A DNA stretch of 64,000 bases from positions 10,162,910 to 10,226,909 of the forward strand of contig NC_089724.1 of the NCBI RefSeq assembly GCF_035083965.1, read 5' to 3'. The notes under the pieces are model-generated. The model was given only the letters and a program-made list of their open reading frames with translations, was not told where the DNA came from and did not search any database. Shown in pieces: positions 8,084 to 63,943 of the stretch; the stretch's first letter is position 1; each line of letters begins with the position of its first letter. This DNA comes from Branchiostoma lanceolatum (taxonomy: Eukaryota; Chordata; Leptocardii; Amphioxiformes; Branchiostomatidae). The translations under genes and the position numbers were made by a program.

Positions 8084-8178
8084 GATTAGAGAACAAAATA
8101 GGCAAATTGGGTATTCATTGAGAAACCAAATTTTGGTTTCTCAATGAATACCCAATTTGCCTATTTTGTTCTCTAATC
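8084..8178. repeat. 95-bp perfect palindrome
   Basis: Arms of 47 bp around one central base (8131). The left arm starts GATTAGAGAACAAAATAGGC and the right arm is its exact reverse complement. A near copy, longer by a few bases and with one mismatch, is at 8251-8353. The parental satellite unit supplies only one arm. Confidence 0.9.
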
Positions 8179-8250
8179 AAATACATATATGATGAAGGAG
8201 CACAAATTTGTGGATAGCTTTTCCATGACGAAGGTATATTTGATTAGAGT

Positions 8251-8353
8251 ATTTGATTAGAGAACAAAATAGGCAAATTGGGTATTCATTGAGAAACCAA
8301 ATTTTGGTTTCTCAATGAAAACCCAATTTGCCTATTTTGTTCTCTAATCAAAT
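8251..8353. repeat. 103-bp near-perfect palindrome
   Basis: Centre at 8302, 51-bp arms, one visible mismatch (GTATTC in the left arm versus GAAAAC in the right). Both this and the first palindrome are followed by the same downstream sequence, AAATACATATATGATGAAGG, so they were duplicated as one unit of about 171 bp. Confidence 0.88.
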
Positions 8354-8470
8354 ACATATATGATGAAGGAGCACAAATTTGTGGATAGCTTTTCCATGAC
8401 GAAGGTTGATTCATAGCAAAGTACCACAGCAAAGCAAATGATTGGCTTATTGTAACCACATCCCCTAACG

Positions 8471-12200: not shown

Positions 12201-15200
12201 GAGGCGGTAGAGGCAGTGGGTTGTTATCCACTGTGTCTAGGGCTCGGTATTCCAGACAGTATTTTTGGGGGTGATCTATTTCGTATAGTATATTATGGAC
12301 CTGAATATCTAACCTTCATCTAGATTAATTAATGATCGTTTTGATTGGCAGCCTCGTCTGTTTCAAATGCCAATGACCATTAGACCTACTTCGGTCAAAA
12401 AGTAGAAATGCAAAATAAAACATAGAAATGCAAACATTTGACAGACATGCAACCACTCTCTCATTGGTCGAGCTAGTAATTGCCATGCTATCATTGGTTG
12501 AAATGCTAATTATGATGGCCAGTCAGTCCAATAGCAGCGCTGATTCATGATAAAACATTACATACGTCATACGGCAGGAGGACGGCCTCTCGGATGAACA
12601 TGTCTCCGTACAGCAGATGTCTGGCGAACTTTGCCCGCAGAACTCTGCCGGCAAAATACAACGCTAACGGGCCCAATAACCACATCCAGGAAGACGGGGA
12701 GTGAAGGATCAGAGTGATCCACCACAACGTCACCAACTTGTGCGTCCAGAAGAAAACCTGCACATCACACAACACGATGAGTATGATTGAAGTGTGGGCT
12801 TGAATAAAGTTCTAAACAGCAACTATGCGGCTACAGCGTCCTTTCTGAATACATGGCGTGAGTGTGTACGGTTGGCTTGAGGTTGCCCACTACTTTGACT
12901 ATGATTGAAGTGTGGTTACACCAAAGTCAGGTGTCGGAAACCGAAAAATTGAGCGGAAAATTGAAACAAAAGATGATACCTGAGTTCTATTATTAGACGA
13001 AAAAATGTAATAGTGATTCTGTTTAGTATATATCATCATTGCGATCTTGCCCATGCATTTACAAAGTCACCAGTTTTAGATTTAGTTCAGATATATAACA
13101 GTTAACGACGCTATGTTAATGACGGCCGTAACTGAGACTGAATCCGCGTCTTTGCTTGACTTTGGTAATTATGAGACAACCTAAGAAAACATAGTCACGT
13201 GCCTGCCACGTACCTTCTCAGAAAACAACTTCGTGAGACAATCTGGGTCTTATATATGATCACTGAGTCCTTATGAACCGAGCTACAAGTGGTAAAAACG
13301 TCAACTTTCTAAAGCCTGCCCGAAGTCATTGCTATGGGCAAGTCAAGACGATTTAGTCCCCCTCTCACTGGACCCTCGGCACGCTGGCGGCGTCGCTGTG
13401 GCCGATCGAATAAACAAAGCACTCAACGAGTTTCATCGACAAAAAAGAATATTTCTAAGCTTTGTGTGTTTTGTTGTCTTTTTTGGCCATACTTGTACGT
13501 TTTGAGTGATATTCCCATTATAAAGTCAAGGGCAACACGAATCCAGTTTAGGACGCAGCGACGCCGCCAGCGTGCCGCGGGTCCAGTGAGAGGGGGGCTT
13601 TATGGGCACGGCTCTAGTTGCGGCACATGTGTGAATTGCTGTATCAATATTTATAGAGTCGTATGGGTAAAAAGTTTCACCTTCATCCGTCCGCCATTGA
13701 TGACGTAATGGAGACTTGACGTGGCGATGACGATGAGAAGCCCCACCAGGATCCACCCCGTGAGACAGGCGGTGCCTGACACCCAGCCTATCCCCAGGTG
13801 CGTCCCGAACAGGTACTCCAGCAGTGTCGGGGACGTGGTTCCCGCCAGGTGTACTGTATAGGACGATATGAAGCGCTTTATATCACACGTATAAATATAA
13901 TGATTACACTGAACATGGTGTTTTATTGTATTCAACGGCAATCAAGATCAATTCAAATAAGTAACGGGAGTTTGATATCCTTTTTTCTGTTGTAAGGCTG
14001 GAAAACTTAGCTGCCCAATTAGATTATACAAAGATCACTCTGGATACCACTGGTCAAGGAAAATTCAGCAACATTGATGAAAGACAACTCCTCAAGTTTC
14101 ATAACTTTCATAGGTTAGTAAGACGAAACAAGAACTCTACTCAGCGCTTTACTCTTATTAAAGACATTATAGCGTTGTTTAACTTCAGTAATTCCGGAGA
14201 GGTCAGTAAAGACTTGAAACATTGCATTCGCCCTAACCAAGATAATGGATCGTCCAGTCAAAGCTACGAAAGTGACGGTGTGACCCTGGTTAAAAGCAGC
14301 ACTTCGCGGAAGGGATCCGAATCACTGGATGATAACCGCGATCACAATGTAAGCCTACCGATTCCTGCCAACGTTTGTTTCCTGTGTGGATCAGCGAGCT
14401 GTTGTGAATCTGACCCACAGGCACATGTATGCGAACACTGCAAAATGCTCCCTGAGACGGTGAAGTGTCTTGTTGACAGAATCAAGCAGCTGGAATGTCA
14501 AGTACATGTAAGAGAAAATGAGACTTGTAATGCACAGGATGATCTGGCTCGTGAAGTTCAAAGGCTTCGGGATGAAAATGCCTCTCTACTACAAATCATC
14601 CAGGTCTTATCAAACGAGAGGACTGGTGTAAACAAACCCTCAAACGAGAGTACTGATGTCAACAAACCCTCTCAATGGTGTCATGTAAATGAGGGCCGAT
14701 CAACACGGCGGCATAACAAACCCACCTGTGCGGATGAAACGATCAGAACCAACAATCGGTTCTCAGTGCTTGATTGCCCTGATGATGTACAGCTGGTCTC
14801 CTCAAAGGAATGTGATTCGAGCATAATCGAAGAGGATAACCAGATTGACTTGTACAGGAAACAACAACAGCAGAGATTCTATCAGTCCAAAGCACCGGAA
14901 AAAACTGTGATCATTGGTGACTCAATGATCAAACATCTGAAGCCCAACAGGATGTCGAGGGGCAGAAATGTGAAATGCTTCACACATCGCGGAGCACGCA
15001 TTGAACAGTTGGTTGCCCCGGCCCGCAGAATTGTTTCATCTGAGAACCCACATTCTGTAATCATACATGCTGGTACCAACAATAACCAAGACTCAGTTCA
15101 GGCGGTTATTGACAAAACCCACAACCTGACAACAACTCTCCGGGAGACTGGTGCACGGAACATCGCGGTATCCGGCGTCATCTCGCGAGCTGATACCGAT

Positions 15201-19085: not shown

Positions 19086-19940
19086 TGGGGGGGGGGGGGG
19101 GGTTACCAGAATTTTGATGCTATATAATGCAACTGCTGCCTAGTCCAGGGTCAAGGTCAAGTTGCCAATACAATTACGTTCTTGGATTCTGGTTCGGCTA
19201 ATAATATTTTTCTGAATCCAAGAACGTAATTGTATTGGCAACTTGACCTTGACCCTGGACTAGGCAGCAGTTGCATTATATAGCATCAAAATTCTGGTAA
19301 CCCCCCCCCCCCCCCCCCCCGAGTACTCTTCAGATTGATTACAACCAGGTGTAACATATTATATCGCGAAAAACCATTGGCCACACTTCAATTTGGCGAC
19401 TCTTAAGAAACTTTGGGTTGAGCTTAAAAAATTACCTTTGCAATGTGTTTCTGGATATTTGTTTGCCAACCCATGGCCTTAGTAACTGTATTTTCCACTT
19501 GCTTTGGGTCAAAAAAGGACTTTGATCTTTGTCAATCATCCCATTGAAACCCATACTTAAGACTTAAAGAAAAGGCCCTCGCAAAAGTGGGCGGCTCTTA
19601 GGAAATCTAGGCCCAATGTTGAAAATAATGTTTGAAGCATGTGTGTGAATAGTTGTTCATCAATTTCCACCCTTAGTAACTGAACTATTCTATTGCGTTG
19701 ACCAAAAAATTGATCTGTAACTTCACCAATTATCCCATAGGAACCAATACTTGAGGGATGATTCCCATCATGCATCACACCCAACGGGTCAGTATGTAGG
19801 GGCACTACTCTGGATTATAAATGGTTCATTTATCTGTCCATCTGTGAACAATTCTTACAAATTTTGTTGATTTTGTACTCATAAAGATGTGATCTTTTAG
19901 ATAATAACCCTCCCCTCTGGTCTTGTGTATGGCTTTAACT
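19050..19940. mobile_element. Possible composite bounded by 22-bp inverted repeats
   Basis: ATACACAAGACCAGAGG at about 19061-19077 recurs in inverted orientation at about 19914-19931 (CCTCTGGTCTTGTGTAT). The interval includes the G/C-run hairpin. It could be a MITE-like element with a nested insertion. Borders and class are uncertain. Confidence 0.35.
19087..19320. repeat. Perfect 87-bp inverted repeat bounded by poly-G/poly-C
   Basis: The left arm 19103-19189 (starts TTACCAGAATTTTGATGC) and the right arm 19214-19300 are exact reverse complements around a 24-bp spacer. G16 (19087-19102) precedes and C20 (19301-19320) follows, extending the symmetry. No coding capacity. Confidence 0.9.
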
Positions 19941-20126
19941 TCTCTCTCAATCCATCCCACAGTCGACAATTTGGAATATTAAGAATCATCTGACAGATGT
20001 GTCACCTCTCCCCAATCCACTCACAACACCGGTACCCGACCTTGCTGAAAACTCTTCCCTTAACATATAATGCCTCCTGGTAATGCTGGTACTATTTCAA
20101 ATTATACATACATGTAGTATCACTAA

Positions 20127-20480
20127 GGCCATGTGGTATCTATTATATGGATGACATCTTTTGGGGACCCCTTCATTCTGAAACCTATGTGGTCTGGAAG
20201 GTTTTACAAAACTAAACAGACTGAGTATGGTAAAACAAAATATAGAATTCTTCATCTTCTGTTCTTTCAAAACTTTTTCTACGGGATATGAAATTCACTT
20301 TTGCATTCTACCAGATTATTAGCCGTTTTCCGAAATATTTTTTTGCAATTTACAGCATGGATTTTCTCATTTTGCAGCTGCTTTTTACGATTTACAGTAT
20401 GGCCGAAAACTTTTTTTGTGGAAACAGCCGAAAATTGATGCACACGCATATGTCATCTATATAATCAAATCAACATGGCC
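20127..20480 (-). mobile_element. TIR element family 1, copy B
   Basis: Begins GGCCATG and ends ATAATCAAATCAACATGGCC, with the family interior (ATTTTGCAGCTGCTTTTTACG). Flanked by TAA on both sides, which may be a 3-bp target duplication. Non-coding. Confidence 0.8.
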
Positions 20481-20754
20481 TAAGATACTGCAAAATGATG
20501 CAGACAATATTTTCATCATAAAACTGTCAATGATAAGCTTTGCAAAAGTGTCACTGAAAAGTTTTGTAAAATCTGCATATGTTACATAATGATTGTATAT
20601 TATCCTAATTAAAAATCTGTAAGTGAATAATGTTGTAAGCGAGCTAGCTTTACACATTTTCTGCTGTTAAGCTTACTACACAGGAGAAAAGATGGCTTGT
20701 TCATGTTTTGCATAGATTTCATTTGTTGTCCAGACACGGGTTTCATCAGCATTT

Positions 20755-29400: not shown

Positions 29401-32385
29401 GTGAAAATGTGAGAATTAACAGATATCAAGAGACTGCAGTGTCTGATATACATTTCTCATATAGAAGATGCTATCACGTAAGAGTGCCACTTTTGTCCTG
29501 TTGTTCTACGACTTACATTTACACTTAATATTAGTAAATACATCTTGTGTGTAACAATTGTTTTCTAAGATTATATCTTATTTAAGATGTTACTAGGCAC
29601 CCGCTTGATGTAATACCAACACTTATTCCAGAGTGGCCAAGTAATAATAGAGAAGTAGTTGTGCAATTCTTAGCATCGTGAGATATCTTGCTATGTACAT
29701 GTCGTCATTCAAGCCTAAACTGTTGTACAGGATCAACCTGCATTTTGTACGGGTAAAACTTATAAGTTATTGTCGGAAGGACCATGCCACTTGGCGTGAA
29801 TTTAACACACAGAGTGACAAACCTTCCAGTGCCGGCGTAGATGTTCTCCCCTACAGACGACCCGGCGTAGTTCGCCGCAGGGTTCGGGTTGTGTGCGAAG
29901 TCACAGCCGTCCGCCCAGCCCTGCGCTATGGTCGCCAGGCTATCGTCCCACTCCTTAGAGGTACAGACATACGGCACATAGAAGTCATGATGGTACTTTC
30001 TAATATAATAGTGATGATAAAGATTCCTATACTAGTTGTGATGATAATGATTATAGTCATAATCCATTTGTTTATTGAGATTTAGTCAACCCTTCCACAT
30101 TTGTGGAAGGGTTGACATAAACCTTAGCGAAGTGAGGAAAGTCGTGTCAAGTGCCAAACCCCGAGGGACAATTTAAATCGGGGGACCTCGGATTTGTTTG
30201 GGTTCTGGGCCAAACACCCAAACTTCCACTGCGACGCCAAAATGATAACAGTTACCAACTCGTTTAATCATGAATATCTTACTTGCAGTCCAGTTCACAC
30301 TACGTACAATAGAGAAAGCCCCTCTTTTGTAGCAGGTACACCATTGTTAAGTTGCGGCTGGCGACTTTCAGAGTGCGTGCAAACAGCAAATTTTGACGTG
30401 TCATACGTGACAAGCTTCAATCATGTTAATAGCTCACTGAATTGACCTTTCATGCTTCTCGTATATCTCTAAACACAATGCCTTTATTCACGCAACTCAT
30501 GACTGAAATACTAGCATATATCACAAACGATCTGCAAACCTCAAACATTCAATTTCCGTAATATTCTGTCTTTATGATACAGTAGAATCTTCAAATCTCA
30601 ACATCATTATAGAATAAAAATGTGTGGCACATTTTACATATTCAGAAAACAAGTTAAAAATAACATTAGTTGGACCGTCGACATACTTTAGATTTGGGCA
30701 GTGCATCTCATTCTCATTTACGGTGATGTTTGTGTTTTTGCACCAGGCTCTTTTTCAAAGCCAGGCCATGTTGATTTGATTATATGGATGACATCCGCGC
30801 GGGCGTCAATTTTCGTCCGTTTCCAAAAAAAAAAAAAATCGGCCATACTTTAAATCGTTAAAAGCAGTTGCAAAATGAGAAAATACATGTGCTATGATTT
30901 GCAATAACATATTTCAGAAAACGGATACTAATGTCGTACATTGCCGACGTCGATTGCAAAGCCCAAGAAGAAGTTTTGAAGGAACAAAAATGAATAATCT
31001 ATATTTTGGTCTACCATACTCGGTGTGTTTACTTTGTTTATCCTTCCTGACCACGTAGATTTCATAATGAAGGCAACTTTTTTTTTTACCAAACTTTTTT
31101 TTTATTCGCACGCTCGCACCAGTTTTGGGGTCCCCAGAGGATGTCATCCATATAATCAAATCAACATGGCCTCATCTTGAACTGACCGACCCTATCAACG
31201 CCCTTCGTTTTCTTTACGAGATGTTATCTTTCGGAAACATGCGGTGGGTGATATTTTCCGAAAAACACTCTTCACGGGTTAGTTTAGGAAACAAGCTCTT
31301 CCCGTTTTACAACAACACTTCTTGGTATCGGATCACTCCCAGTGGGCACACAGTGTGCGGTCTGCAATGCTAATACACCAGTTACAACTCTGATAGAATG
31401 GCCCTGGTTCAAACATGGACACTCAAGACGAAACTATATCTAGTTGAATCATTCATTTTCCTATTAAACAGGAAATGTCCTCACTTCGCCCAGGTGTATG
31501 AAAATTAGAATGGGTATGTTGTTATCTGTACGTGGCACTGTTAATATAACTTATAAAAACTTGAGTGCAGTGACACGTCGTCCTGGTCTATCAAAAACCG
31601 AAGTAAAAAAAAAAATGTTGACAAGGCATTTTTTTTGGACAGACAGTCTCCCTTAAACAGTTCCCGAAAATGATGACATCTCGATAGCTTCCATTACCAT
31701 TCTTCTAAGACCTACGTGCTACCAGGACCTCGTACCACATGTACTTGTTTTAAGTAAGAACGTGTTCCCAGTTGTCTTATTTTCTTACGCCATGATCTGT
31801 GATCACAGGAGTGTTACAGGGACATACATGAGTGGTTAGGTCACCTTTACTTAGTCAAGCTAGCTCCACGCAAACTTTTAAACTACTGAGTTGATCTTTA
31901 AGCTTGATTGGCAAAACATAATCATTTGATAAGGCTGTATACGAATGGCCTTTGCAGAAATACGTTGAGGTGGGTCCGGTCCGTATGAGTTACACTAGAG
32001 TCTGTTATTATGTCTGTACAATCATGTACTTCGTACAGCCCTATCCCGTATTATAATTATCAAAAGCTGGTGTACAAAATATCGCGTGCTCAAACGTGTG
32101 CAGGAATTTTTAATCACCTATTGTCGGACTATCTCTTACATGTTAGCCCCACAGGTGCTTTAGTATAGATTAGGATGGGCGTAATTGTACACCGTAGAGA
32201 AAGTAACGATGAAAAGCAAGAAAAGGCCTCACCATATACTCCATGTTGGCAGCTGTAGGGTTGACGGCTTTCCTGTAGTTGTTGTGGGCCTGTAAGATGG
32301 TGTTGATCTGTTCTTGTGACAGATCGGTGGCGCCAAAGCTCCCTGTCAGGAACATCAGAATGGCGGCTACACTCAGGACCTGCAT
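26448..32385 (-). CDS. CAP/SCP (CRISP-like) secreted protein with hydrophobic C-tail (8 exons)
   Basis: Exons 32385-32233, 29953-29823, 29377-29272, 28807-28698, 28239-28148, 27797-27747, 26970-26929 and 26533-26448 join in frame to about 256 aa. A signal peptide (MQVLSVAAILMFLTGSFG) leads into a complete CAP domain: NNYRKAVNP, MEWDDSLATIAQGWADGCDF, AHNPNP (His), GENIYAG (Glu), NWNNEV (Glu), CGHYTQVVW (His), LVVCNYA. All four cavity tetrad residues are present. After GNFIGQKPYVSGTPC and a short Cys-rich piece come two tiny Gly/Thr-rich linker exons (51 and 42 bp, both phase 1-1). The final exon ends with SMLPLGGVIVTLLILNMP, a tail fitting a GPI signal or membrane anchor. This plan recalls GLIPR1/PI16-type proteins. 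Intron 1 (2.3 kb) holds TIR element copy C. Confidence 0.88.
27370..27706. mobile_element. TIR element family 3 (TTATGCTTNGGTCC ends), copy 1
   Basis: The left end GGCTTCGGGTCCCAATTGG and the right end AATTGGACCTAAGCATAA are inverted relative to each other. The interior is very G+C-rich (GGTCCGCCGGGTAGTTGACG, GGGGCCCGGTCGGGACC). It lies in a CAP-gene intron just upstream of the exon at 27747-27797, in + coordinates 40 bp away. Confidence 0.65.
28885..29200. mobile_element. TIR element family 3, copy 2
   Basis: Starts TTATGCTACAGTCCCAATTG and ends CATTGGACCGAAGCATAA. The interior (GGGTCCCGACCGGGCCCC, TAGGGGTCACGCCCGAAAG) is the inverse of copy 1. The terminal TTA/TAA fits the 3-bp target of Harbinger-type elements. 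It lies in an intron of the CAP gene. Confidence 0.7.
30088..30165 (-). mobile_element. SINE 3'-end fragment, antisense
   Basis: CCACATTTGTGGAAGGGTTG, then ACATA and GAAGTGAGGAAAGTCGTGT, is the reverse complement of parts of the SINE at 54411-54830, with a deletion between the two blocks. Confidence 0.5.
30764..31171 (+). mobile_element. TIR element family 1, copy C (in CAP intron 1)
   Basis: Clear 33-bp TIRs: GGCCATGTTGATTTGATTAT then ATGGATGACATCC at the left, and the exact complement at the right end (31139-31171). 408 bp, no coding capacity. This is one of the best preserved copies. Confidence 0.9.
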
Positions 32386-33430: not shown

Positions 33431-34799
33431 GTGGTGTAACTGAAAACTGACTGGTGCTGCACTTTTGTTGTTTTGTATAAACTCGAACGCTCCAGTAGTT
33501 GAGAGTGGCACTCTGTCACCTTAGTGTCCCACAAGTGGCACGATCCACGAATGGATGACTCAGGATATGTAAATCCCATTGTCATCCAAAACTACACCAT
33601 ATTTTATAAGATGGACTAATTAGTCTGATGGAATGTTATCTATGTACCAGTGAATGCCATACTTTGTACCTTGTACAATTGTTGTGCAATAAAGTTATTA
33701 TCATTATTATTATCATGTGTGTGTGGAGTTTTGACTTATGTGTCTAAAGTTGCGGGTAGTGTGTTTGTGTGTAAGGTGAGTCGTGTTTGTGTGTGTTGGA
33801 AGCGGCCAGTTGTATGTGTAAAATGCATGTATTGCATACATGTATATCTAATTTTGCAACAATTGGCCCTCAGGGTTTCCTCCAGGCTATACCTGTTTCA
33901 TTCTGGCTAGGCGACATTCTTACAAGTTCACGTCAATAAACAGTAAGCTGACAAAGAAAGTACTCCTGTACCTCTGTCACGTCACCAGCTCTCAGTTTAA
34001 TACCACTATCAGATCAGATCAAGGCACAGTCGCGCACGTTCGAAGACTTTTTGTGCCAGAACCTGCCATCGACCAGGATCTAAGACGGTTTTGCCGTCGC
34101 AAGACAGCTGAATTTTGTACGACACGACCACGACTGTCACAAGACTGTCCTTAGTTTGCTGTCGTAGACCTGTCAAACAACGTATGTGACAGTTATTCAT
34201 GTCGACTACACGTTTCAGTGAAAAACATGGAGACTCACGGTGAAACAACGTCGCTACGTAACGTCATGCACTTACCTGTTGAGACGTGGGGGCTTTCGGT
34301 AATGTTTCCTTTACCCTTGTTCTCACGAAGGCGACCGCGCTGGTAGCTTGTTTGCACTGATGCTCACTGCTTCATTCGAGAAGACCGAAATAGAGGGCGT
34401 GTTTTGGGCTCAGAACAGTACCCACCTGACGTGAGCTGAACAATGGTGAAGGTGTGGCTATGTTGGCACGTCCCCTGGGGAATTCACGGAGCAGTTCGAG
34501 TGGTTCTTTATATGTGGACACGTCACAGTTTCAAACAACACGCTATACGTTTTAATCAAAACATCTGCCCAAATACTACAACAAGGACACAATCTTCGTG
34601 GTGCGTGATTTTGACTTTGTTGACATGAACAATACAACATGTATGTGCAAAACACAGGTCGAACTTCTCTACCACTAATAGTCCTTGGATGAAACTTGTG
34701 AATTATTCATGAGAGGCTCTACATGTTTGATCTGATTTTTGATGAAGCGTTACAGAATGTACATGGTGTGCCCGTACGTTGCATACAAGCAATAAACAT

Positions 34800-34901: not shown

Positions 34902-35826
34902 AGGAAGCTGATTCCAACTTTCATAAAAGATGGCAACATTGATTTCTGTTTTCTTTTGATAGTGTTCTATGTTACTTGCCTGGCTACCCTGAAACACCAT
35001 TCGCTACAGGAAGAGTGGATCTATTTTGTGTCAGCCCGTCCCAGGGTGTCATCCTAAACTGGGGCATACACAGCATCATTTCCATACAGGTATTCCGAGA
35101 GAATCCCTTTATGCGTTACCTAACACCCATTTGTTTGTGCTACCTAGTGACAGACAAACGATAAAGCTTGTTGTTCACTGATTGACAAGCCATACGAGAT
35201 AGCTGGGCCCGAAAAGCCCAAAGTAAAGCTTCAAATATTACTACCAAGGTTGCGCTTTGTCCCTTTTGTATGGGTTTTTAGACCCCAGTGTTGTGATTTT
35301 CAAAATGAATTTCTGTTAACGTTAGACCGCTTTTTAAAAACTATCCAGTCGTATCTGGGATTGAGTTATAGTTAGATGCCAATTTGTCATGCTCTATTGT
35401 TAACCTACGCAAAAGACTACACTAGCAGACTTAGAACTGATACTACTGCTTAACGGCTAAGAGACGTGAAGAATAGATGGGTTTTAGCGTCATTGGACAA
35501 AATTGCTTACGGAAACCGCCGCGCCACGCATACCTTGAACCACTATGTAGACGAGTCGTAATCCTATCATTTGTGAGGTGTATCAAGGGTGCCCGTTGAA
35601 ATAACAACGAAAGTACTAGTCAGTCAGATACGCTATGTAGCTAGTCCTATCCCTTTATAGCTAACTCAAAGCATTTCCCGGTAATTCTAGAATACCTCAT
35701 GCAAATAACAATGGACAGAAGCTCCCGAGGCATGTCACGGTATGAGCACGGTGCGGGATGCCACAATGACTCATCTGTGGACTACTTTTGGCATCGGCTT
35801 GCTCGACTTACTTTCAGTGTAGCTAA

Positions 35827-36234
35827 GGCCATGTTGATATGATTATATGGATGACATCCTCTGGGAACCCCAAAACTAATGCGAGCGTGCGAATAAAAAC
35901 AGTTTGGCAAAAAGAAGATGCCTTCATTATGAAATTAACGGGGTCAATAAGGTTGAACAAATGACTAAACACACGTACAGAGAAGGGTATAGCAATCAAT
36001 AGATTCTTCATTTTTGTTAATTCACATCTTCTTCATTGACTTGTGCAATCTACGATATTAGTATCCGTATTCCAAATATCTTTTTGCATCTAACGGCATA
36101 GATTTGCTCATTTTGTATCTGCTTTGTACGTTTACAATATGGTAGAAAACGTTTTATTTTATTTTATTTTGGGAAATGGGCTAAGATTGATGCGTGCGCG
36201 GATGTCATATCCGTATAATCAGATCAACATGGCC
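35827..36234 (-). mobile_element. TIR element family 1, copy D
   Basis: Begins GGCCATGTTGATATGATTAT and ends AATCAGATCAACATGGCC, 408 bp. It is oriented like copies A and B (GCGAGCGTGCGAATAAA near the left end). It lies about 500 bp downstream of the SEA/EGF gene stop codon. Confidence 0.85.
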
Positions 36235-36444
36235 AGAGACCATCCTGATGCTCGTACATTTCAAGGGGTCACAAACTCTTCAATAATGATCTCATTTGTT
36301 TATTCCATTAAAACACATACAATCAACTATACAGATGTAACAATTAGCTATATGTCGCAATTGAAAGGATAGCCATAGCTTGCGCATCTCGGATTAAAAT
36401 TTAAGAACTCATTGACAGTTAATAACTGAACGTTCTTTCTAGTT

Positions 36445-43300: not shown

Positions 43301-44090
43301 GGATATTCATGATGATGTTAAGCAGGTAGCGGCAGCCTTAGCCTTAGTTTCAGGTCACCTCTTCTACTCAATCATGTTGGAACGTTCTTTGTTAAGATGG
43401 GCTGACAGAAGATGTGAAACCGGTCTTCACTACTGTCCCGAGGCACTCTGATTACGGACGGCTGGTGTCAACATGATCTTTAGACTCGCTAAACTGCAAA
43501 CGTGAATCCAAAGCAGGCTTTAAGTTTGCACTTTGACATGCGGTTTGTTTACATTGTGGTATTTCCCAATTAGCACACTACAGGTCAGGTTTAAACGTAC
43601 GTTTTATGAGAAATTTATGAAATGGTAAATGATCATTCTGATGCCATAGTAAAGATTGTAATCTTTTCTAAACTGAAGATGTTTCTATCGCGGAAATCTC
43701 TATGAATTCAATTAAAGGAAAAGCAAACACATGTCCCTAGTGGGAATGTATAAACACCACGTTTACATGGGAATCAGTTGTCATCAGTCACTCGTATACA
43801 TGTATAACGTTATATATCAGAAATGATGACATGCACACCACAAAATGTTATGTAGTTTTTAATGAGCATCGCCTACAGTGCAATGACCTAGTCCTACACA
43901 CCAGAGCTTGTAACAGTTACAGATTTCTTGACATTTGCATTTTGTGCTGGAGTTTGTGCACAATTTTCTTTATCTTTCAAGCGCTCTCCTGACTTAAGCT
44001 GTGGTTGATAGTATATCATTGAGTCGCTTATGTATCTACGAAAGCAAGTACCTCACATACGGTAGTCACATTTTCTTCCATAACACGTAA
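42808..44090. other. Intergenic 5' of the SEA/EGF gene
   Basis: Contains a mixed (CTGT)n/(CT)n/(TA)n microsatellite at 43169-43300. No gene is recognised, and no clear TATA box was found upstream of the ATG at 42807. Confidence 0.45.
43169..43300. repeat. Compound CTGT / CT / TA microsatellite
   Basis: GTCTGTCTGTCTGT, then CTCTCT with TATTT interruptions, then TATATATATA, then CT again and a final TA run. Confidence 0.95.
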
Positions 44091-44468
44091 GGCCATGTTG
44101 ATTTGATTATATGGATGACATCCGCGCGCGCTTAAATTTTCGTTCGTTTCAAAATAAAAATCGACCATACTGTAAATCGTACAAATCAGCTTCAAAAAGC
44201 ATATGCCGTGAATTGCAAAAAATATTCGAAAAACGATGCTAATGTCGTAGAATTCCAAAATCAATTCCAAAGTAAAAGAAGAAGAACAAAAATGAAGAAT
44301 TTGATATTCGGTATACCATACTCTGTTTGTTTAGCCATATGTTCAACCTTCCTGTGTTCATGTTGAAGGCAACCTTTTTTGCCTAACGTTTTTTTTTTTA
44401 ATTCGCACGCTCGCGTCAGGTTTGGGGTTCCCAGAACATTTCATCCATATTATGAAATCAACATGGCC
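44091..44468 (+). mobile_element. TIR element family 1, copy E
   Basis: Starts GGCCATGTTGATTTGATTAT and ends near ATGAAATCAACATGGCC, 378 bp. It has the same orientation as copy C. Its right end is only 16 bp from the stop codon of lectin gene A (44485), so it may supply the 3' UTR of that gene. Confidence 0.85.
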
Positions 44469-44484
44469 TATGAAAAATTCGGCA

Positions 44485-44887
44485 TCAGCCCTGACGACTG
44501 GTCTTGAACGGGTCGTATTCACACACGAACGCGTGCTGAGAGCTGCACTCTCCCAGCAGCCACCTGTAGCTGTGCGGACGGCTCATGTAGCCGCAGTCGT
44601 TCTCAGGAGTGTTGGAGCCTTGGAGCTGCCTGGTCCAGCGCCTCTGGTCCAAGGAGGTGTACGGCACCCCATCACTCCACACCAGCTTCTTTTCCGTCTC
44701 CTTGTCACTCAGGCCGATCCACGTGCTCTTCCGAATCTTCCGAGATACTCCCACCTAGTGATGAATTGTGAAGCAATACTCAACGTTTCTATTGCGTTTC
44801 ATACTCTCAGATTTCGTTTAAAGATGAAATGTTAGCACTAACTATATTAGTCTTGAATAACTGCTTGTATGTATGTATGTATGTATG

Positions 44888-44942
<55 letters not shown>

Positions 44943-47900
44943 GTGTGTGTATGTTTGTATGTATGCGCCATGTGTGAGTGTTGTTCTCAATGGCAGTGTG
45001 TCAGCGGTTTTTGTTTGAACTCACCAGTACAGGATAAAGGCTCATCCTGTCCCTGACGGTGGCCAGTCGTCCCCCCTCCGCCCGACAGGTGTCCTCAGCC
45101 CGTCTGTACGTGGTGGGTGTTCGCTCGAAACGGTAACAGAGGAACAGACCGCTGGCCCTGCGAGGTTTGGTGTAGCCTTCTGGACACGCCATGTCCGCTG
45201 TGCATCAACACGACACAATTCCATATATCCGTTACTATCACGACAAGAATCCGGAAACACAAACACACAGACAGACAGACAGACAGACTCACACACAGAC
45301 GCACAGACACGTCAAAAAATATCTCCACTTTTGAGATGATGACGTATGCCAATAACAAAAGTTGTACTAAATAGAAATGCCCTATGCATGCTGCGGCTTT
45401 AGCAAGCATCATGATTGAACAGTACAATCCATATTATCGTTTCACTGTTTAACTGATCAGCATCTTGGTCCCTACGAAATAATGATTTAAAAAAAGGTAA
45501 TGCTTAGGTCCCATTTCCAACCATTTGCCCGGCCGGGCTGTTTGCGAAAACGAAAATCAAAAATCCATATCAAGAAAATAAGCAATACCGCGTTTGTTGT
45601 CTTTTATTATCATATTTTTCGTTCCTACAAGCTGCCCGGCCGGGCCCCGGATTGGAAATGGGACCGAAACATAGGTGGCTGACCTTAGGTAGTCCATTGT
45701 AAAAGGTAGTCCATTGTTTCCTGGACACAGACCATCTTGTTAAATCCTTACCTGTTTTTTTGCATGTCCACATCCCGTCATCCCCGAGTGTATGGTACTC
45801 CCCTCGTGGACACTGTTTCTGGTCACACTGGACTGTCCCGTTCTGCGAGCAGGAGCACAAGGTACCGGGAACTCTCTTATCCGCCCAGGATTCACCGAGC
45901 TATGCATAGATGAGTCATAAAAAACATACTCTCCAAGCAGGGGTTGACGTCGTTTAAGGCTTTCTATTTGCCAGGTTTTTCTTTTTATCCGCCAGCGGCA
46001 GACTTGTTTTAGATGTCTTTTTTGGCGTCCAACACAAGTCGGAGTCTAACCGCTTCTTGGAGAGTAATACAAACACAGAATCTGTGTATTATATCAATGT
46101 TTCAAAATTAGCTAGATTTCTTACACTTCGTTCATACTAGTAGTGTGTACCAACATATTTGACTTGAGAGCTATACAGCAACTTGCAATGAATCCATCTT
46201 CTCTGGTACATACACAGATTCTGAAGAACTTTCATGCGAATACCACAAAGCATAAGTTACTTTGATAAAATACACTTTATGGTTGGCAGAATACTGTAGC
46301 GATGTGAATATCTTTACCCGGTGAGTCTTGCCGTCATGTTGACAGCTCCCAGCCGGGCAGTCTGAGAGAAGAACACACCCATCGCCCTCCCACACTCGTC
46401 CGGTCTCGCAGGTACATCCGGGTACGCACTGCCGGGTGCAGGTCGGAGAAGGGTTCTCACAAGATGGCCGACAGGCTGAGCCGCACTGTGACCACCGGCT
46501 ATGGGCGGGGCAGTTTTGTCCTAATAAGGAAGGAAAAAAAAGACGAGCAAATTGAACGGACCCGTTTCCAAAACTCCGGCGGAAATTTGGGCCACAAATA
46601 GATTTAGAAGGTAGACCGCTATGACAAATTTTACCACTCAACCACTCTCGTTTTCAACCAACTCGCGCACACATACCCAGCACATTGTGCTCTCGCGAGA
46701 ATACATTTCGCAATTGCGCCGAGGGTTAGAATGGGGAATAACAGTATTTAGTTGAAATTTGCTTCCTCAGTTTTCAAGGGGAAATGTCCCACCGTGCAAA
46801 AATGAGTCTAAACATGCACTCTCTATGCACCTTACTCTCTCTTGTTATTTTTTAGTAATCTTCCCTTCTACAACTTACCTTTGACAACGCTGTTGGCAAG
46901 TTTTAGATCTATGACAGCACAAGTTGTCTCACAGTCCCTCATGGTGAGGAAGTTGTTCCTGTTCCCTCCACAGCCTCCATATATGAACGACTTGCACTTC
47001 CTTTCGGAAGAATCGAAGTAGAACCGCCTGCGGGCAGCCCGGCAGAGCCCGACCTTCTTCGGCTCGGCGCACGTGTCCGCTGATCTGGCGTCCGGCTTCC
47101 CTGGAGAGTGATCATGAGCGAGAAATGAAAGTTAAGTGTAACATGAAGTACATCGTGAGTACAAAATATGTAATACAATGTGTGATCGTCTCACTGTCCT
47201 GATAACTGATGTCGTCAGTTGTCGCTTGATTGTTAGTTGTCTCAGTAGCCAAAAGAGATACCAATACATTATCATTCTGTGTTTAATGCTTCGGTTGCAA
47301 TATGAACAAGGGGCCCGCCGGCTAGTTCACGGGCTGTATTTTGTCACTTTCGGGCGTGACTCCTACTTGGTCCCGTCGGACACCCTGCGGTTGCCGGAGT
47401 ATTTTTGGGCCTGGTCGGGGGAAAGCATAACACAATCTCTCCCTATCTAGGGTTTATATGGGCCTATCTCATAACAATCAAGTCAACTATAAACATTGTG
47501 ATAGCTACAAGTGTTCTGCTGAACATGGGACTTGGCCGCTGTACTGGGAGCAACAGATACCGGTTATGCTAGGATCACATTTCCTAGACGGTGCCCAGTC
47601 GGGATGTTTGCGAAAACGAAAAATAAGATATGCATATCAAGAAAATACGCAATTTCTAGTTAGTTATTTCTTACGTTTTGTGTCCTTTATTGTATTCTAT
47701 ATCATACTTTTCGTTCCCGCAAGCTGCTCGGGTTTGGAAATGTGACCTAAGCATTACCGACTGCTTCCCGTGAATTCACAGCTTCATACTGAGGCGGTTT
47801 ATCACTTAACATTTATTCATCAAGCGTGATGCATCCGTCACCACATCGCAAGTAACACATCACACCCCAACAATTCATATCCATCTATAACCACAGCTAA

Positions 47901-52292: not shown

Positions 52293-55200
52293 TTAGTTCT
52301 TGTACGGGTTGTATTCGCAAACGTAGGCGCGCTTTGCGCCACACTTGCCCCGCTGCCAGCGGTACAGCGCCGGGCGGCTCATGTAGACACAGTTATCGCC
52401 GGGGTTGTTCCGGGTGCGCGGGCACCAGTGGCTGTACTGGCGGCGCTGGTCGTACTTCACGCCGTCACTCCACACCAGCCTCCCCGTCCGGCCCCGGGCA
52501 CTCAGACCGATCCACGCGTCCGCGTGAAGCTTTAGGAACGTCAAAATCTAAACAGAATCGGGAAAGAGCAAATATTAGTCTTTTTAACATTAGAGACATG
52601 TATATTTCGTACAGAATAATGTTACCTTTATTTCACGAGCAGTCTGCAATTGGAATCCATATAATGATCATCAAATATCCATCTGAAGTTACACTTTTGT
52701 TATACTGTACCATGACTAGTCGTAAAACAACAGTGTAACCCGACATAGTACATCAAAACAACTTTCACATCTTTTCGCATAGTTCTGTGTAGCTCTGGCA
52801 ATTTGTTTGTGGTTTTACTTCACCCATCAGTCGTATCAGCTCTTTACTTACATGTAGCTTTCTGCTTACACTTATTGAAGCTTAAAATTAATGATCTATT
52901 GATGAGAACACCTAGACAGAGCTGCAGTTCATGAGAACGTGCTCACCGTGACCCTGAATTGGGTGATGAAGCTACGGATGGTCACCAGACGCCCCCCGTC
53001 TACCCGGCAGCTGGTCTGAGCCTCACGGTAAGACGACGGCTTCCTTTCGAACCGGTAACAGAGTGACCGGCCTCTGGTACTAGAGCTCGAGGGCTTTGTG
53101 TAACCACGCGGACAGCGGCCGTATTCTGTGGGCACGTGTATTGACATTGTACATGTGAGAAACACATTGAAATCCTATGTAGACATTTTAGACAAGGCAG
53201 GACACTATCATTATTTTCATATATTAGGAATTCATATGTACTACGTACATTACACATTTTGTGAATGATGATTGATAATACTTGAATTACGTCGATGAAG
53301 GTTAGACATAATGCATCATACAAAATGAATTTTCGAACTGGATAAGATATATAACAGAGCCATAGTAGTGCATCAAATGGATTGATTTATTTGCATATGA
53401 CGAATCTTAAATTGATGATTGCTTTACAATTTCAATATCACGAAATGAGGAATAGCACCCAAAATCATACTCTTTAACGCTGTAATCTCTGCAGAAACAT
53501 ATTCCTGTGCATGTATTCTGACAGGTTTCAAATTTTCGGTAAGACTGATCTAGTAGTGCCTATCCGTACCTTTGCAGTTGACTTTGTTGCCGTAGGCGTC
53601 GAAGAAGACAGCGTTACATCCCCCGCAGTAGTTGGACCGGCAGGTGGCGTCGGGATGGGCCGGGCATCTGGTGACCTGGCACGGGTCGGCAAAACAGTTG
53701 ACCACGTCCACTCCTGGAGGACACAGAGTCGCTGGACCAGAGAAAGGAGTTATATGAAAGAATTAGATATGACATATTTGAAAACGCTGTACGTTCTAGA
53801 TCTCTGACTTGTAGATATAAATCGAATGGCAGCTCATCGACACTAATTGTACACTAACCGCTATATTCGGCGACGTCAGCGAAAAGCATTACTTGCTGTT
53901 AAGTTATGGCCACCACTGGGGCCTAAGAGAATTATTGCACACACGTAAAAAGTAAAATGTATGATTGATCATGAAGTTTGATCAAATAAGATATGAGACA
54001 AATATCAAATATGAAGAATTTCAAGATTTAAATCATCAGTTGCTGGTAGAAATAGTGATTACCTGATGATATTTCCTAAACCTGATTCATCAGATCTATA
54101 TGATGGTCCATTAGTGTACTGTCATGTACACAGCGATGTACATCAAATGCCACTGAATTATGATGACTGTCAATTGTTAAACATAATGAAACATTCTCAG
54201 TAAAGGTTTCTTACGGACTGGTCTGCAGTCCCAGGTGCCTTCCTCAGTCAGGTAGTGCTCACTTCCCCGTGAGCAGTCGACGAACAGACATCTCTCTCCC
54301 CGGCCGTCACACAGGCAGTTCTTACCGGCTGTTCCACGCACACCCCAGGACTCTCCCACCTGTCAATAAGGAATGAATGAATGATTTTATTGTACAACAA
54401 TTGCAACGTATGTGGCGTCGTGTGGCGCAAGTGTAGAGCGCGCGGCTGTCAAACAATGGGACCCGGGATCTAATGCCCAGAGACATGTCCGAACTTGCGT
54501 CACGACGTTGTGCCCTTGAGAAAGGCACTTAACACGACTTTCCTCACTTCACTCAGGTGTAAATGAGTACCTAGCTCATCTAGGGTTAGGGAAGTCCCTC
54601 GGATAGGACATCAAATGGAGGTCCCGTGTTTGGGGAGAGCCACACCCCGCGCACGTTAAAGAACCCACCACACCTTTCGAAAAAGAGTAGGGGCATGCCC
54701 CGGTGTGCGATGGTCCAAATCTTACAGTCTGGTCTGGGATGACATCTTGAAAAGGTGATAGTCACCTGTTATGTCAATCCTTCCACAAATGTGGTAAATC
54801 GAAATAAATAAATAGATGAATAAATAAGCGATGACAATGTATGGCAATGTACAGATAACATAAGTTACAATCTTGGTCTATTTTTCAACAATTCTAATTA
54901 CTACATTACTATATCGATTGCAACCTACAGTAATTACTAAACAGAAATATTATTGTAAACATCATACTGCGTATGTCTAGGCTACTTTACGACTTTACAT
55001 TTGTCAAAAGAATAGCACAGTTTCTTTTTTGGACACCGTTATGAATGTATTGGCCTAGGTCGCTGTTTGGAGATTTCCAGTTACTTTGAGTTTACATCTG
55101 CGTCACGTTCACAATGGTAGTGTACGTTATGTTTGCTAGCCCATGATTATTACATGTAACGCTTGGAGTTAGATATGAAAAGATAAGCTATGACATGTCG

Positions 55201-59305: not shown

Positions 59306-60155
59306 CTAAAAATCCTGATAGGCTCTGATTGCTGTCACGGCGAAAGGATCGTACTCGCAAATATAAGGCCGCTTCGCCTTGCACCAGCCCAAACGCCAGC
59401 GGTACTTCCTAGGCCGACACATGTAGGCACAGTCGTTGTTCTTCGTGTTCAGCACCCGTCTGTCCCAGTGTTCGTAGTCCTTCATCCTGTTGTAGGGCAC
59501 CCCGTCACTCCACACGAGACGCCTGTCGGTCTCCCTGTCATCTAAGCCGATCCACGTGCTCTGGCGGATGAGGAGCACGGTGCGGATCTGTGGGAAATTC
59601 AAAGGTACAGGGTTGTTTGTTAAATGTGATCAGTCAATGAAAGACCACTAGCACTTATGAACAAAACGCCGCATCATCTATAGCTAAAGCCCAGGTTATT
59701 AATAGCCGAACATGGCCTCCCGACCTTCCCCAACTATGGTTGGGAGTGGTTCGGGAGCTAGCCTCCGCTGTCGTCGGTTTGTGTTCGGCTTGATTGGCTG
59801 GCGTTCGGCTGTGCTAGCTGAATGTTTTGGCTGTGGAGGACGGAGGGGGGGGGGTATCGGGGGCCAAGTGTTGCAAAAATACTTATATATAAAGAAAAGA
59901 AATTTCTGATATATAAGGATGATTTAACGCACTTATATACATTCAGGTTTACACACATATATACAAGGGAGAACACACACAGATATATGTTCAGGTTTAC
60001 TTACACACAGATATATACAAAGGAGGACAGACACATATGTTCAGCTTTACTCACTCATATATATATATACAAGGGGAACACACACACATATGTTCAGCAT
60101 TACTCACACATATATACAAAGGAGTACACACATACATGTTCATGTTCAGCTTTAC

Positions 60156-60205
<50 letters not shown>

Positions 60206-63200
60206 ACACACACACACACATTATTGATACATCGTAACATGCACACATGTACACTCATGTTAGGTATGTCATGTGTAGATTAATCTCTTAGAAGTATTAC
60301 GATTATAAGCCATGGTCTTCATTTTCAAAGGTAGACAGCTCTTAGGCTCGAAAAGAAGTGTGTGGGTTTTGACCCCAATTTTGCTCCAAAATTTGAAGTA
60401 GAGTAACTGAAGAATGATATTAATGAATCGTCATGACTTTCGGAAGCTTATGAGATGACTGACACATATAGATGTGAAATATGCAAATCATGTCCTTATG
60501 CATCAATACTGAGTTAATGTTACGATTCTGCTACGTTCATGGAACAGTGGACGTTGCAACATGCAACATATGAAGCCGAAAGAGAACAATCACTTTTTCA
60601 ATAACAGTCTCCATAATGTGAAGAAATCTATACTATAATACTACTGTGGTAAATGACGCGATTTTCACACTTGCAGCATTGAAAAATGAACTAAGGTAAG
60701 ATATCAGCACCAATACATCAAGGCCCATTTGGAACGATTGCAATGAAAATGCTACAATTGCCCTTTTATGATAAAACCTTCCTGGCCAAGATAAGATAAG
60801 TCTAAATTAGCAACGTGTGTATTACGTTGCTAATTTAGACTTATCTTATCTTGGCCAGGATCTTTATCTTAAAGTTCAAAGTAACAATGCACCCTTGTGA
60901 GACGACTTTTCCTGTCTCTGTGGACGCCGTAAGATTGTTGTAAGGAAAAAATATTGATATGTACTGGCAATTTCACGGCACATATCAAAGTAAAATGTGA
61001 CGATCGCATCACATATATCCGTGTCTTGCAACATAGATATATGTGGCGATCGTTTGATATATATCTGTGTTTTGTGGAACAGTTATATGTGGTGCGATCG
61101 CCACATATATGTCTGTCTTGCAACACAGATATATCTGTTCCACAAAACACAGATATATATCGAACGATCACCACATATATCTGTGTTGCAAAACACAGAT
61201 ATATGTGGTGCGATCGTTACATATATCTGTGTTCCAAAACACAGATATATCTGTTCCACAAAACACAGATATATATCAAACGATCACCACATATATCTGT
61301 GTTTTGTGGAACAGATATATGTGGTGCGATCCCCACATATATGTCTGTCTTGCAACACAGATATATCTGTTCCACAAAACACAGATAGATATCAAACGAT
61401 CACCACATATATCTGTGTTTTGTGGAACAGATATATGTGTTGCGATCCCCACATATATGTCTGTCTTGAAACACAGATATATCTGTACCACAAAACACCG
61501 ATATATATCAAATGATCACCACATATATCTGTATTGCAAGACACAGATATATGTGGTGCGATCGCCACATATATCTGTGTTCCAAAACACAGATATATCT
61601 GTTCCACAAAACACAGATATATATCAAACGATCGCCACATATATGTTTTCACGCACAGATATCTGTGTCATGCATCACAGATATATGGGACCCTCGAATC
61701 CCATCTATGTGTGTCTTGGGTTATAGTTATAAGCGTTATTCACAGATAACATAACAAATAGATTGTCAATGATTTTTCGCCGACACACAGACGGCTTTTG
61801 TATGGGAAACATCTAGAACAGCACTTGAATCTTGAAACAAAGCACCCGCTGTGAACTTAGCTGTAAGAGTCAAGAAGCCTCAGGTTTTTTAACCATTGGC
61901 TGAAAATGTTACAGGTTTAGTCAAGTTCTGCGCTGTTTTCAACATTTTCAGCCACTGATAAAAAAGAAACCTCCTTATTACCTTTACACTAAAGTTTACA
62001 GCTGAGTTCCATATAGCAGGTACTTTGTTCCAAGATCCAAGTGCTGTTCTATAAGTTTTGTTCTATTGTAATTGTGTGTGGGCGAAAAAATCATGACAAT
62101 CTATATATGTCATTCGAGCGCCACATATATATGTGTTACAAAACACAGATATATCTCAAGCGATCGTCATATATATCTGTGTTGCAAGAGACAGATATAT
62201 GTGGTGCGATCGCCACATATATCTGTGTTCCAAAACACAGATATATCTGTTCCACAAAACACAGATATATCTCAAGCGATCGTCATATATATCTGTTGTT
62301 GCAAGAGATAGATATATGTGGTGCGATCCCCACATATATCTGTGTTCCAAAACACAGATATATCTGTTCCACAAAACACAGATATATATCAAACGATCAC
62401 CACACATATCTGTGTTGCAAGAGATAGATATATGTTTTGCAATCGCCACACATATCTGTGTTCCAACACACAGATATATCTGTTCCACAAAACACAGATA
62501 TATATCAAACGATCGCCACATATATCTATGTTGCAAGACACGGATCGTCACATTTTACTTTGATATGTGCCGTGAAATTGCCAGAACATATCAATATTTT
62601 TTCCTTACAACAATCTTACGGCGTCCACAGAGACAGGAAAAGTCGTCTCACAAGGGTGCATTGTTACTTTGAACTTTAAGATAAAGATCCTGGCCAAGAT
62701 AAGATAAGTCTAAATTAGCAACGTAATACACACGTTGCTAATTTAGACTTATCTTATCTTGGCCAGGAAGGTTTTATCATAAAAGGGCAATTGTAGCATT
62801 TTCATTGCAATCGTTCCAAATGGGCCTTGATGTATTGGTGCTGATATCTTACCTTAGTTCATTTTTCAATGCTGCAAGTGTGAAAATCGCGTCATTTACC
62901 ACAGTAGTATTATAGTATAGATTTCTTCACATTATGGAGACTGTTATTGAAAAAGTGATTGTTCTCTTTCGGCTTCATATGTTGCATGTTGCAACGTCCA
63001 CTGTTCCATGAACGTAGCAGAATCGTAACATTAACTCAGTATTGATGCATAAGGACATGATTTGCATATTTCACATCTATATGTGTCAGTCATCTCATAA
63101 GCTTCCGAAAGTCATGACGATTCATTAATATCATTCTTCAGTTACTCTACTTCAAATTTTGGAGCAAAATTGGGGTCAAAACCCACACACTTCTTTTCGA

Positions 63201-63340
63201 GCCTAAGAGCTGTCTACCTTTGAAAATGAAGACCATGGCTTATAATCGTAATACTTCTAAGAGATTAATCTACACATGACATACCTAACATGAGTGTACA
63301 TGTGTGCATGTTACGATGTATCAATAATGTGTGTGTGTGT

Positions 63341-63398
<58 letters not shown>

Positions 63399-63943
63399 GT
63401 AAAGCTGAACATGAACATGTATGTGTGTACTCCTTTGTATATATGTGTGAGTAATGCTGAACATATGTGTGTGTGTTCCCCTTGTATATATATATATGAG
63501 TGAGTAAAGCTGAACATATGTGTCTGTCCTCCTTTGTATATATCTGTGTGTAAGTAAACCTGAACATATATCTGTGTGTGTCCTCCCTTGTATATATGTG
63601 TAAACCTGAATGTATATAAGTGCGTTAAACCATCCTTATATATCAGAAATTTCTTTTCTTTATATATATGTAATTTTGCAACACTTGGCCCCCGATAGGG
63701 GGGGTCTGGAGTGGGTCAAAAGAATATATATACTGAAATGATTTTTATCATGATTTCATCACGAACTCACCGCGATCCAGAGCTCTGTCCGATAGTCGCG
63801 GATGGTGACCAGACGACCGCCGTCAGCGCGGCAGCTGCTCTCGGCATCATGGTAGGAGAGACGCTTCCTGTCGAAACGGTAGCAGAAAAATATCTCCTTA
63901 GAGGACTTTGGCTTGATGTAACCTTCAGGGCACTGGCCAGTCT
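59306..63943 (-). CDS. Secreted mosaic protein C, lectin-domain exons only (5' part outside window)
   Basis: Two exons, 63943-63771 and 59587-59306, join in phase 0 to the last 151 residues. The first reads TGQCPEGYIKP, FFCYRFDRK, SSCRADGGRLVTIRDY, ELWIA. The second reads IRTVLLIRQSTWIGLDDRET, WSDGVPYNRM, DCAYMCRP, CKAKRPYICEYDPF, and has a C-terminal extension VTAIRAYQDF. Exon sizes (173 and 282 bp) and phases (1-0, 0-stop) equal those of genes A and B. The 4,183-bp intron between them contains the large foldback element. Upstream modules are beyond the right edge, so their presence is inferred. Confidence 0.85.
60784..60860. repeat. Internal hairpin of the left arm
   Basis: A perfect stem of about 35 bp starting CTGGCCAAGATAAGATAAGT, closed by a short GTGTATT-type loop. 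A mirror copy is in the right arm at about 62689-62767. Confidence 0.9.
61010..61690. repeat. Left array of about 116-bp palindromic units
   Basis: CCACAAAACACAGATATATA recurs at about 61140, 61256, 61372, 61489 and 61605, a spacing of 116-117 bp. Each unit is itself an imperfect palindrome built from ACATATATCTGTGTT and AACACAGATATATGT halves around GCGATCGC-like centres. Long repetitive frames on both strands are by-products. Confidence 0.9.
62110..62545. repeat. Right array of about 116-bp palindromic units
   Basis: The same unit as the left array, with CAAAACACAGATATAT recurring at about 62137, 62251, 62370 and 62485. It has fewer units than the left side, so the arms differ in array length. 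Confidence 0.88.

What the first reader, a model, noticed from the sequence alone, without database searches (positions are those of the whole stretch)
59855..63697. Large intact foldback element with repeat-array core and apparent poly-G target duplication
Seen: exact inverted termini (TATCGGGGGCCAAGTGTTGC), about 1.15-kb arms nearly identical in inverted orientation, inner arrays, a spacer of about 400 bp, and G-runs immediately outside both ends. The symmetry stops exactly at the G-runs, as expected for a mobile element flanked by a duplicated G-rich target. Known: FB and TU foldback elements have long inverted arms with tandem repeats and often lack coding capacity. Inference: a recent, non-autonomous foldback insertion, possibly of an undescribed family. 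Transcribed through the intron, it could fold into a >1-kb dsRNA and feed small-RNA pathways.
Basis: partly seen in the sequence, partly recalled or inferred. Interest (0 to 1): 0.85.

Follow-up and report, generated by a model that had tools for sequence, protein, structure and literature searches.

The report
Foldback transposon inside a lectin intron
A 3.8-kb piece of apparently non-coding DNA that mirrors itself from end to end sits in an intron of an animal C-type lectin gene; it is best read as a "foldback" transposon, dependent on another element's enzyme, that landed in a run of Gs, which is a known kind of element although its exact family could not be settled here.

Summary
Window 59855-63697 (3,843 bp) has exact termini TATCGGGGGCCAAGTGTTGC, outer arms matching in inverted orientation for about 1.2 kb, subterminal repeats, palindromic arrays, and G10/G7 flanks. 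One correction: the "400-bp spacer" contains an inverted repeat (134 of 156 aligned sites identical, plus 38 gap columns), so the element is symmetric to a hinge at 61915-61932. No transposase was seen in the 17 of 45 ORFs scanned. It lies in a 4,183-bp phase-0 intron of a C-type lectin gene; without it the intron would be 340 bp, and two paralogues in the window have introns of 399 and 270 bp.

Best reading: a non-autonomous foldback-type DNA transposon in a G-run. The flanks allow a perfect duplication of at most 7 bp, so the 8-10 bp of Mutator-type foldbacks is not met. TA..TA termini plus a 6-bp duplication would fit IS3EU/GingerRoot, a lead only. A TA duplication remains possible.

"Recent" is not shown: the outer 120 bp hold 4 substitutions, the next 917 counted sites none, which suggests arm-to-arm homogenisation. 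Copy number, empty allele and family could not be tested because no genome is held. A possible second terminus lies at 33840-33875.

The parts
59855..63697 (.). whole foldback element, 3,843 bp, palindromic to a hinge at 61915-61932
59845..59854 (+). left flanking G-run (G10), possible target duplication
63698..63704 (+). right flanking G-run (G7), possible target duplication
59855..59874 (+). left exact terminal inverted repeat TATCGGGGGCCAAGTGTTGC
63678..63697 (-). right exact terminal inverted repeat
59952..60162 (+). left subterminal array, 52-bp unit, 4.1 copies, next to a CA repeat (60158-60220)
63392..63603 (-). right subterminal array, 50-bp unit, 4.1 copies, mirror of the left one, next to a TG repeat (63328-63396)
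60204..60962 (+). arm segment, left; 759-bp exact complement of 62586-63344 (its outer end lies in the CA repeat)
62586..63344 (-). arm segment, right
60780..60860 (.). perfect small hairpin inside the left arm (37-bp stems, 7-nt loop); mirrored at 62688-62768
   Evidence: families D9, D10
61059..61644 (.). left inner array, 116-bp unit, 5.1 copies, built of alternating inverted half units of about 23-24 bp
   Evidence: half units read from the sequence
62122..62538 (.). right inner array, 116-bp unit, 3.6 copies
61746..62113 (.). core inverted repeat, arms 61746-61914 and 61933-62113, more diverged than the outer arms
59588..63770 (-). host intron, phase 0, GTGAGT..CCCACAG, 4,183 bp (340 bp without the element)
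63771..63941 (-). C-type lectin exon upstream of the intron (gene on the minus strand; its upper limit was not tested)
   Evidence: Lectin_C, E 6.1e-17 on the joined exons
59309..59587 (-). C-type lectin exon downstream of the intron, up to the stop codon
33840..33875 (-). possible second terminus of the same family, 28 of 36 nt identical to the right terminus; no partner end secured

Best explanation
It is a non-autonomous DNA transposon of foldback architecture that inserted into a G-run in an intron of a C-type lectin gene. Shown: the termini, full symmetry, subterminal and inner repeats, no recognisable transposase in the ORFs scanned, and an intron otherwise of ordinary size. Inferred: a transposase supplied in trans pairs the two ends. 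It probably binds at repeated motifs, since ACACAGATATAT occurs in both the subterminal and the inner arrays. The element is cut out and inserted with duplication of a short G target. The outer arms were homogenised by copying one arm from the other, while the extreme ends, inner arrays and core kept older differences. Superfamily, as a lead only: TA..TA termini with a duplication of 6 bp (at most 7) fit IS3EU/GingerRoot better than Mutator. The confidence given is for the general claim (an inserted foldback DNA transposon); the first two rivals are variants within it about target and superfamily, so the numbers overlap and do not sum to one.
For: Exact termini, 0.01 expected. Near-identical inverted arms with a 759-bp perfect run. 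A core that also folds back (RNA fold z -13.8). Motif ACACAGATATAT, chosen after seeing the repeats, 30 times inside and 0 times in the other 60.2 kb, 4 of the 30 in the subterminal arrays. Intron 4,183 bp, 340 bp without the element; two lectin paralogues in the window have introns of 399 and 270 bp. G-runs of 7 or more at both ends when only 4 other G or C runs of that length exist in 64 kb. No transposase match at E up to 0.1 in the 17 ORFs scanned of the 45 listed. A possible second terminus at 33840, 28 of 36, reached by 0 of 150 Markov simulations (best 25). Patchy arm identity: 4 of 120 against 0 of 917 sites, Fisher p 1.7e-4 with a boundary chosen after seeing the data. IS3EU termini and duplication length from passages of PMC10045372.
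Against: Only one complete copy is in hand. No genome is held, and no match was found in the viral or prokaryote collections, which are the wrong hosts anyway. A homopolymer duplication is weak evidence: 10 Gs on the left, 7 on the right. The terminus-like stretch at 33840 does not share the TATC end. No transposase was found, so the superfamily is a guess, and 28 of the 45 listed ORFs were not scanned. One ORF (62097-62672) exceeds the Pfam cut-off for DUF5894 (37.7 against 25 bits), though it is made of array repeats.
Confidence: 0.82

Rival explanations
1. It is a DNA transposon with a TA target duplication (Tc1/mariner/IS630-like), true termini TCGGGGGCC.., inserted at a TA between two G-runs. 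(A variant within the general claim.)
For: The ends read G-run TA|TCGGGGGCC...GGCCCCCGA|TA G-run, so TA lies in the right place on both sides. Matching TA at the two ends is automatic under this reading.
Against: Of 4,593 TA sites in the window none has six Gs (or six Cs) on both sides, while outside the element's flanks 4 G/C runs of 10 or more exist, so the target would be unusual.
Confidence: 0.15
2. It is a Mutator-type (FB, TU, Tm1-like) foldback element with an 8-10 bp duplication whose G-run has since changed length. (A variant within the general claim.)
For: The architecture is the same: long composite arms, tandem repeats, non-coding middle; [quoted passage not shown]
Against: The flanks match 7 of 8, 7 of 9 and 7 of 10 bp, not perfectly.
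Confidence: 0.2
3. It is a host-made or replication-made inverted duplication (palindrome), not a transposon.
For: Arm-to-arm copying is suggested by the patchy identity, and no second complete copy is seen.
Against: Symmetry stops at matching termini beside G-runs on both sides, the intron is of normal size without it, and a terminus-like sequence occurs elsewhere in the window.
Confidence: 0.06
4. It is an assembly artefact (foldback chimera or merged haplotypes).
For: Inverted duplications are a known artefact (recalled), and no reads were available.
Against: A foldback chimera would carry inverted flanks too; here the flanks differ, two exons of one gene join in phase across it, and the arms differ by substitutions and indels.
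Confidence: 0.04

Closest known systems
Tetris / DAIBAM (Drosophila virilis foldback element; PMC4079207, passages read)
   Same: Long inverted arms (up to 1,735 bp) with a flanking domain, a tandem-repeat domain and an inner domain; no conserved ORFs; internal repeats that also form satellite-like arrays
   Different: 8-10 bp duplications against at most 7 perfect bp here; no sequence comparison was made; here the tandem repeats lie in two separate tiers and the middle holds an inverted repeat (whether Tetris's middle does was not checked)
Galileo (P superfamily; PMC3573991 and PMC3688188, passages read)
   Different: No THAP transposase seen here; P-type termini begin CA (recalled), here TATC
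Tm1 (Mutator/Foldback family of root-knot nematodes; PMC3169594, passages read)
   Same: Composite inverted termini of variable length
   Different: 8-10 bp duplications, most commonly 9, in 45 of 53 complete elements as the paper states
IS3EU / GingerRoot (PMC10045372, passages read)
   Same: TA..TA termini (GingerRoot occasionally TG..CA) and usually 6-bp duplications
   Different: No transposase here; whether any member has foldback arms was not established
FB (Drosophila) and TU (sea urchin), recalled only
   Same: Foldback architecture with tandem repeats in the arms
   Different: 9-bp and 8-bp duplications (recalled), not matched perfectly

Membership tests
foldback-type elements (structural class) | long inverted arms containing tandem repeats, with no transposase between them | tested here: met
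   no transposase in 17 of 45 ORFs
foldback-type elements (structural class) | several dispersed copies with shared termini | tested here: inconclusive
   one complete copy and one possible terminus in the window; no genome held
FB/TU/Mutator foldback | perfect 8-10 bp target duplication | tested here: not met
   7 of 8, 7 of 9, 7 of 10; the length of a homopolymer can change after insertion
Galileo / P superfamily | 7-bp target duplication | tested here: met
   GGGGGGG on both sides; homopolymer, so weak
Galileo / P superfamily | THAP-containing transposase or its remnant | tested here: not met
   no such Pfam match at E up to 0.1 in the 17 of 45 ORFs scanned; a non-autonomous copy would lack it
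IS3EU/GingerRoot | TA..TA termini | tested here: met
   TATC..GATA, unless TA is the target duplication; rule from passages of PMC10045372
IS3EU/GingerRoot | 6-bp target duplication | tested here: inconclusive
   GGGGGG on both sides fits, but the runs are longer
IS3EU/GingerRoot | IS3-like DDD/E transposase | tested here: not met
   no transposase match in the 17 of 45 ORFs scanned; a non-autonomous copy would lack it
Tc1/mariner (ITm) | TA target duplication | tested here: inconclusive
   TA present at both junctions but could be part of the terminus
small-RNA-producing hairpin locus (hpRNA) | small RNAs mapping to the arms | not testable with these tools
   no RNA data

The most novel reading that the evidence does not exclude
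A foldback family mobilised by an IS3EU/GingerRoot-type transposase, with G-run targeting, built as nested palindromes at four scales (half units, arrays, core, arms) whose outer arms are kept alike by arm-to-arm conversion. When the host gene is transcribed it gives a hairpin with a 759-bp perfect stem inside a lectin intron.
Probability: 0.15. Interest if true: 0.6.

Novelty: new member of a known kind. Interest (0 to 1): 0.36.

Why it matters
[quoted passage not shown] A foldback with TA..TA ends and a duplication of at most 7 bp would, if confirmed, add a further line and support the idea that long repetitive arms arise independently. The uneven arm identity is a warning that arm similarity need not date an insertion. 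A perfect 759-bp inverted stem in a gene's intron is also a natural test case for splicing, RNA editing and endogenous small RNAs.

Tried and rejected
A genome-wide search for other copies was impossible: no genome is held for the window. Exact terminus patterns found 0 stretches in viral contigs and 0 in genome contigs. The inner-array motif found 0 in viral contigs. A protein search with the array ORF gave 2 pattern matches, none confirmed by tblastn.

Rfam at gathering thresholds and ARAGORN found nothing in the window.

Coding by the arrays was rejected: long ORFs overlap in several frames on both strands. Pfam DUF5894 passes its cut-off in one ORF, with matches below the cut-off to about the same 25 profile positions in four other array ORFs. 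Other Pfam matches (RepA_N, Auxin_BP, Ribonuc_red_lgN, Ig_F54D1_6) and the NCBIfam matches of two array ORFs were below the cut-offs.

Paralogue introns as a true empty site were rejected: apart from intron size no useful flank similarity was found. A search for an inverted partner of the stretch at 33840 gave only a weak, gapped one. The DNA fold of the left end (z -2.8) added nothing. A solved-structure search with the GPCR did not help to name the organism.

Paper searches: amphioxus + foldback + transposon, 0 papers; transposon with poly-G or G-rich target terms, 0; DUF5894, 0. The others gave listings, some capped at 12-20 of more. Passages of five papers were read, and outline and passages of a sixth, PMC5802833. 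No title in those listings names this element, which is no proof that it is undescribed. Repbase was not available.

Full report
Observation. The finding is real and at the stated place. The 20-base terminus is exact at 59855-59874 (+) and 63678-63697 (-), against 0.01 matches expected at up to three mismatches. Aligned in inverted orientation, the outer arms show 6 substitutions in about 1,210 sites (left-arm positions 25, 29, 68, 118, 347 and 1109; 347 lies in the CA tract), a 2-nt indel, a length difference in the CA tract and a 14-nt indel before the match runs into the arrays. Two further apparent substitutions, at 1229 and 1235 of the left arm, lie where the alignment enters the array and were left out of this count. 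The longest perfect complement is 759 bp.

Correction to the observation. The middle is not a plain spacer. Segments 61746-61914 and 61933-62113 are inverted copies (134 of 156 aligned sites identical, plus 38 gap columns), with a local score of 80 against at most 26 in 500 mononucleotide shuffles; as RNA, 61690-62110 folds with z -13.8 against 100 dinucleotide shuffles. The element is therefore symmetric to its hinge. The order from each end inwards is: terminus, subterminal repeats of about 50-52 bp, CA tract, arm with a small perfect hairpin, palindromic 46/116-bp array, diverged core. The motif ACACAGATATAT, chosen after seeing the repeats, occurs 30 times in the element (4 in the subterminal arrays, 26 in the inner arrays) and 0 times in the other 60.2 kb.

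Setting. The element lies in an intron of a C-type lectin gene on the minus strand. The intron runs 59588-63770, begins GTGAGT, ends CCCACAG and is in phase 0. The joined exons match Lectin_C at E 6.1e-17. Without the element the intron would be 340 bp. Two paralogous lectin genes in the window (44.5-45.2 kb and 52.3-53.1 kb) have introns of 270 and 399 bp. In the 399-bp case the intron lies at the same place in the protein alignment; in the 270-bp case the alignment has a gap there, so the position is only approximately the same. This is what an insertion predicts, and the unrelated flanks and the reading frame kept across the element speak against an assembly chimera.

Junctions. The left flank is G10 and the right flank is G7. 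Only four other G or C runs of 7 or more exist in the window, two of them the ends of one hairpin element at 19087-19320; a crude estimate under uniform placement puts both ends beside such runs at 2e-9. A perfect duplication can be at most 7 bp; at 8, 9 and 10 bp only 7 positions match. Because the ends read TATC..GATA, a TA duplication is a second reading. None of 4,593 TA sites has six Gs or Cs on both sides, whereas four other runs of 10 or more exist, so I favour the G-run target, without proof.

Age. The claim "recent" does not follow. With the CA tract left out (70 sites and one substitution), the outer 120 sites hold 4 substitutions and the next 917 counted sites hold none (Fisher p 1.7e-4; the boundary was chosen after seeing the data, so the p-value flatters). 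The core is more diverged, 134 of 156. One age with an even rate does not easily produce this; arm-to-arm conversion or template copying can. That is inference.

Coding. One search lists 45 stop-to-stop ORFs of 40 aa or more that overlap the element. I scanned 17 of them against Pfam (7, 10; one, 59822-60283, begins outside the element), and none matches a transposase at E up to 0.1. The other 28 and anything shorter were not scanned. One array ORF, 62097-62672, passes the cut-off of DUF5894 (37.7 against 25 bits). The matching 25-residue stretch recurs because the DNA repeats, and four other array ORFs give matches below the cut-off. I read this as a by-product of the repeat, but I could not learn what DUF5894 was built from (0 papers).

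Relatives. A 36-nt stretch at 33840-33875 matches the right terminus at 28 of 36 positions; 150 first-order Markov simulations reached at most 25 (the length of 36 was my choice). BLAST gave 90% over 30 nt, E 2.4e-4. It does not share the TATC end, and no convincing partner end was found. No other copy could be sought: no genome is held, and the viral and prokaryote collections gave nothing.

Comparison. The architecture matches foldback elements: Tetris (passages of PMC4079207), Galileo (passages of PMC3573991 and PMC3688188) and Tm1 (passages of PMC3169594). In Galileo the THAP domain binds sites in the arm repeats, which is the model for the repeated motifs here. These three make duplications of 8-10, 7 and 8-10 bp. 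PMC10045372 states that complete IS3EU families always have TA..TA termini and usually 6-bp duplications (passages). This element's ends and G flanks fit that, so IS3EU/GingerRoot is my best lead for the missing transposase, at perhaps one chance in four. The duplication lengths of FB and TU, and the CA termini of P elements, are from memory.

Verdict. This is a known kind of thing, a foldback transposon, in a complete and tidy copy, with a superfamily lead and a sign of uneven homogenisation. The host is a metazoan by its gene content; amphioxus is my guess and was not tested. Transcription of the intron would give a long hairpin, but nothing here shows that small RNAs arise.

Noticed in passing
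19087-19320: A short hairpin with 103-nt arms, 100% complementary, whose ends are long G16/C20 runs; looks like a small inverted-repeat element with poly-G ends.
   Followed up: partly
30763-31172, 35824-36236, 44088-44471, 20123-20483, 3925-4273: Five related copies of about 350-413 bp; in three the two ends read AGGCCATGTTGAT..ATCAACATGGCC, in the other two one end has diverged; probably a MITE family. No clear target duplication was read off.
   Followed up: partly
8084-8349 and 7702-8466: An inverted repeat of 101 nt, 98% complementary, within a stretch of direct repeats about 168-171 bp apart.
   Followed up: no
44497-45186, 52302-53120, 59309-63941: Three C-type lectin genes in the same orientation on the minus strand.
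   Followed up: partly
13965-16282: Two overlapping ORFs, one with a reverse-transcriptase domain and one with a GDSL-like match below its Pfam cut-off; probably a LINE.
   Followed up: no
62097-62672: Array ORF above the Pfam cut-off for DUF5894, probably a product of the tandem repeat; it would be worth checking whether that Pfam family was itself built from such repeats.
   Followed up: partly
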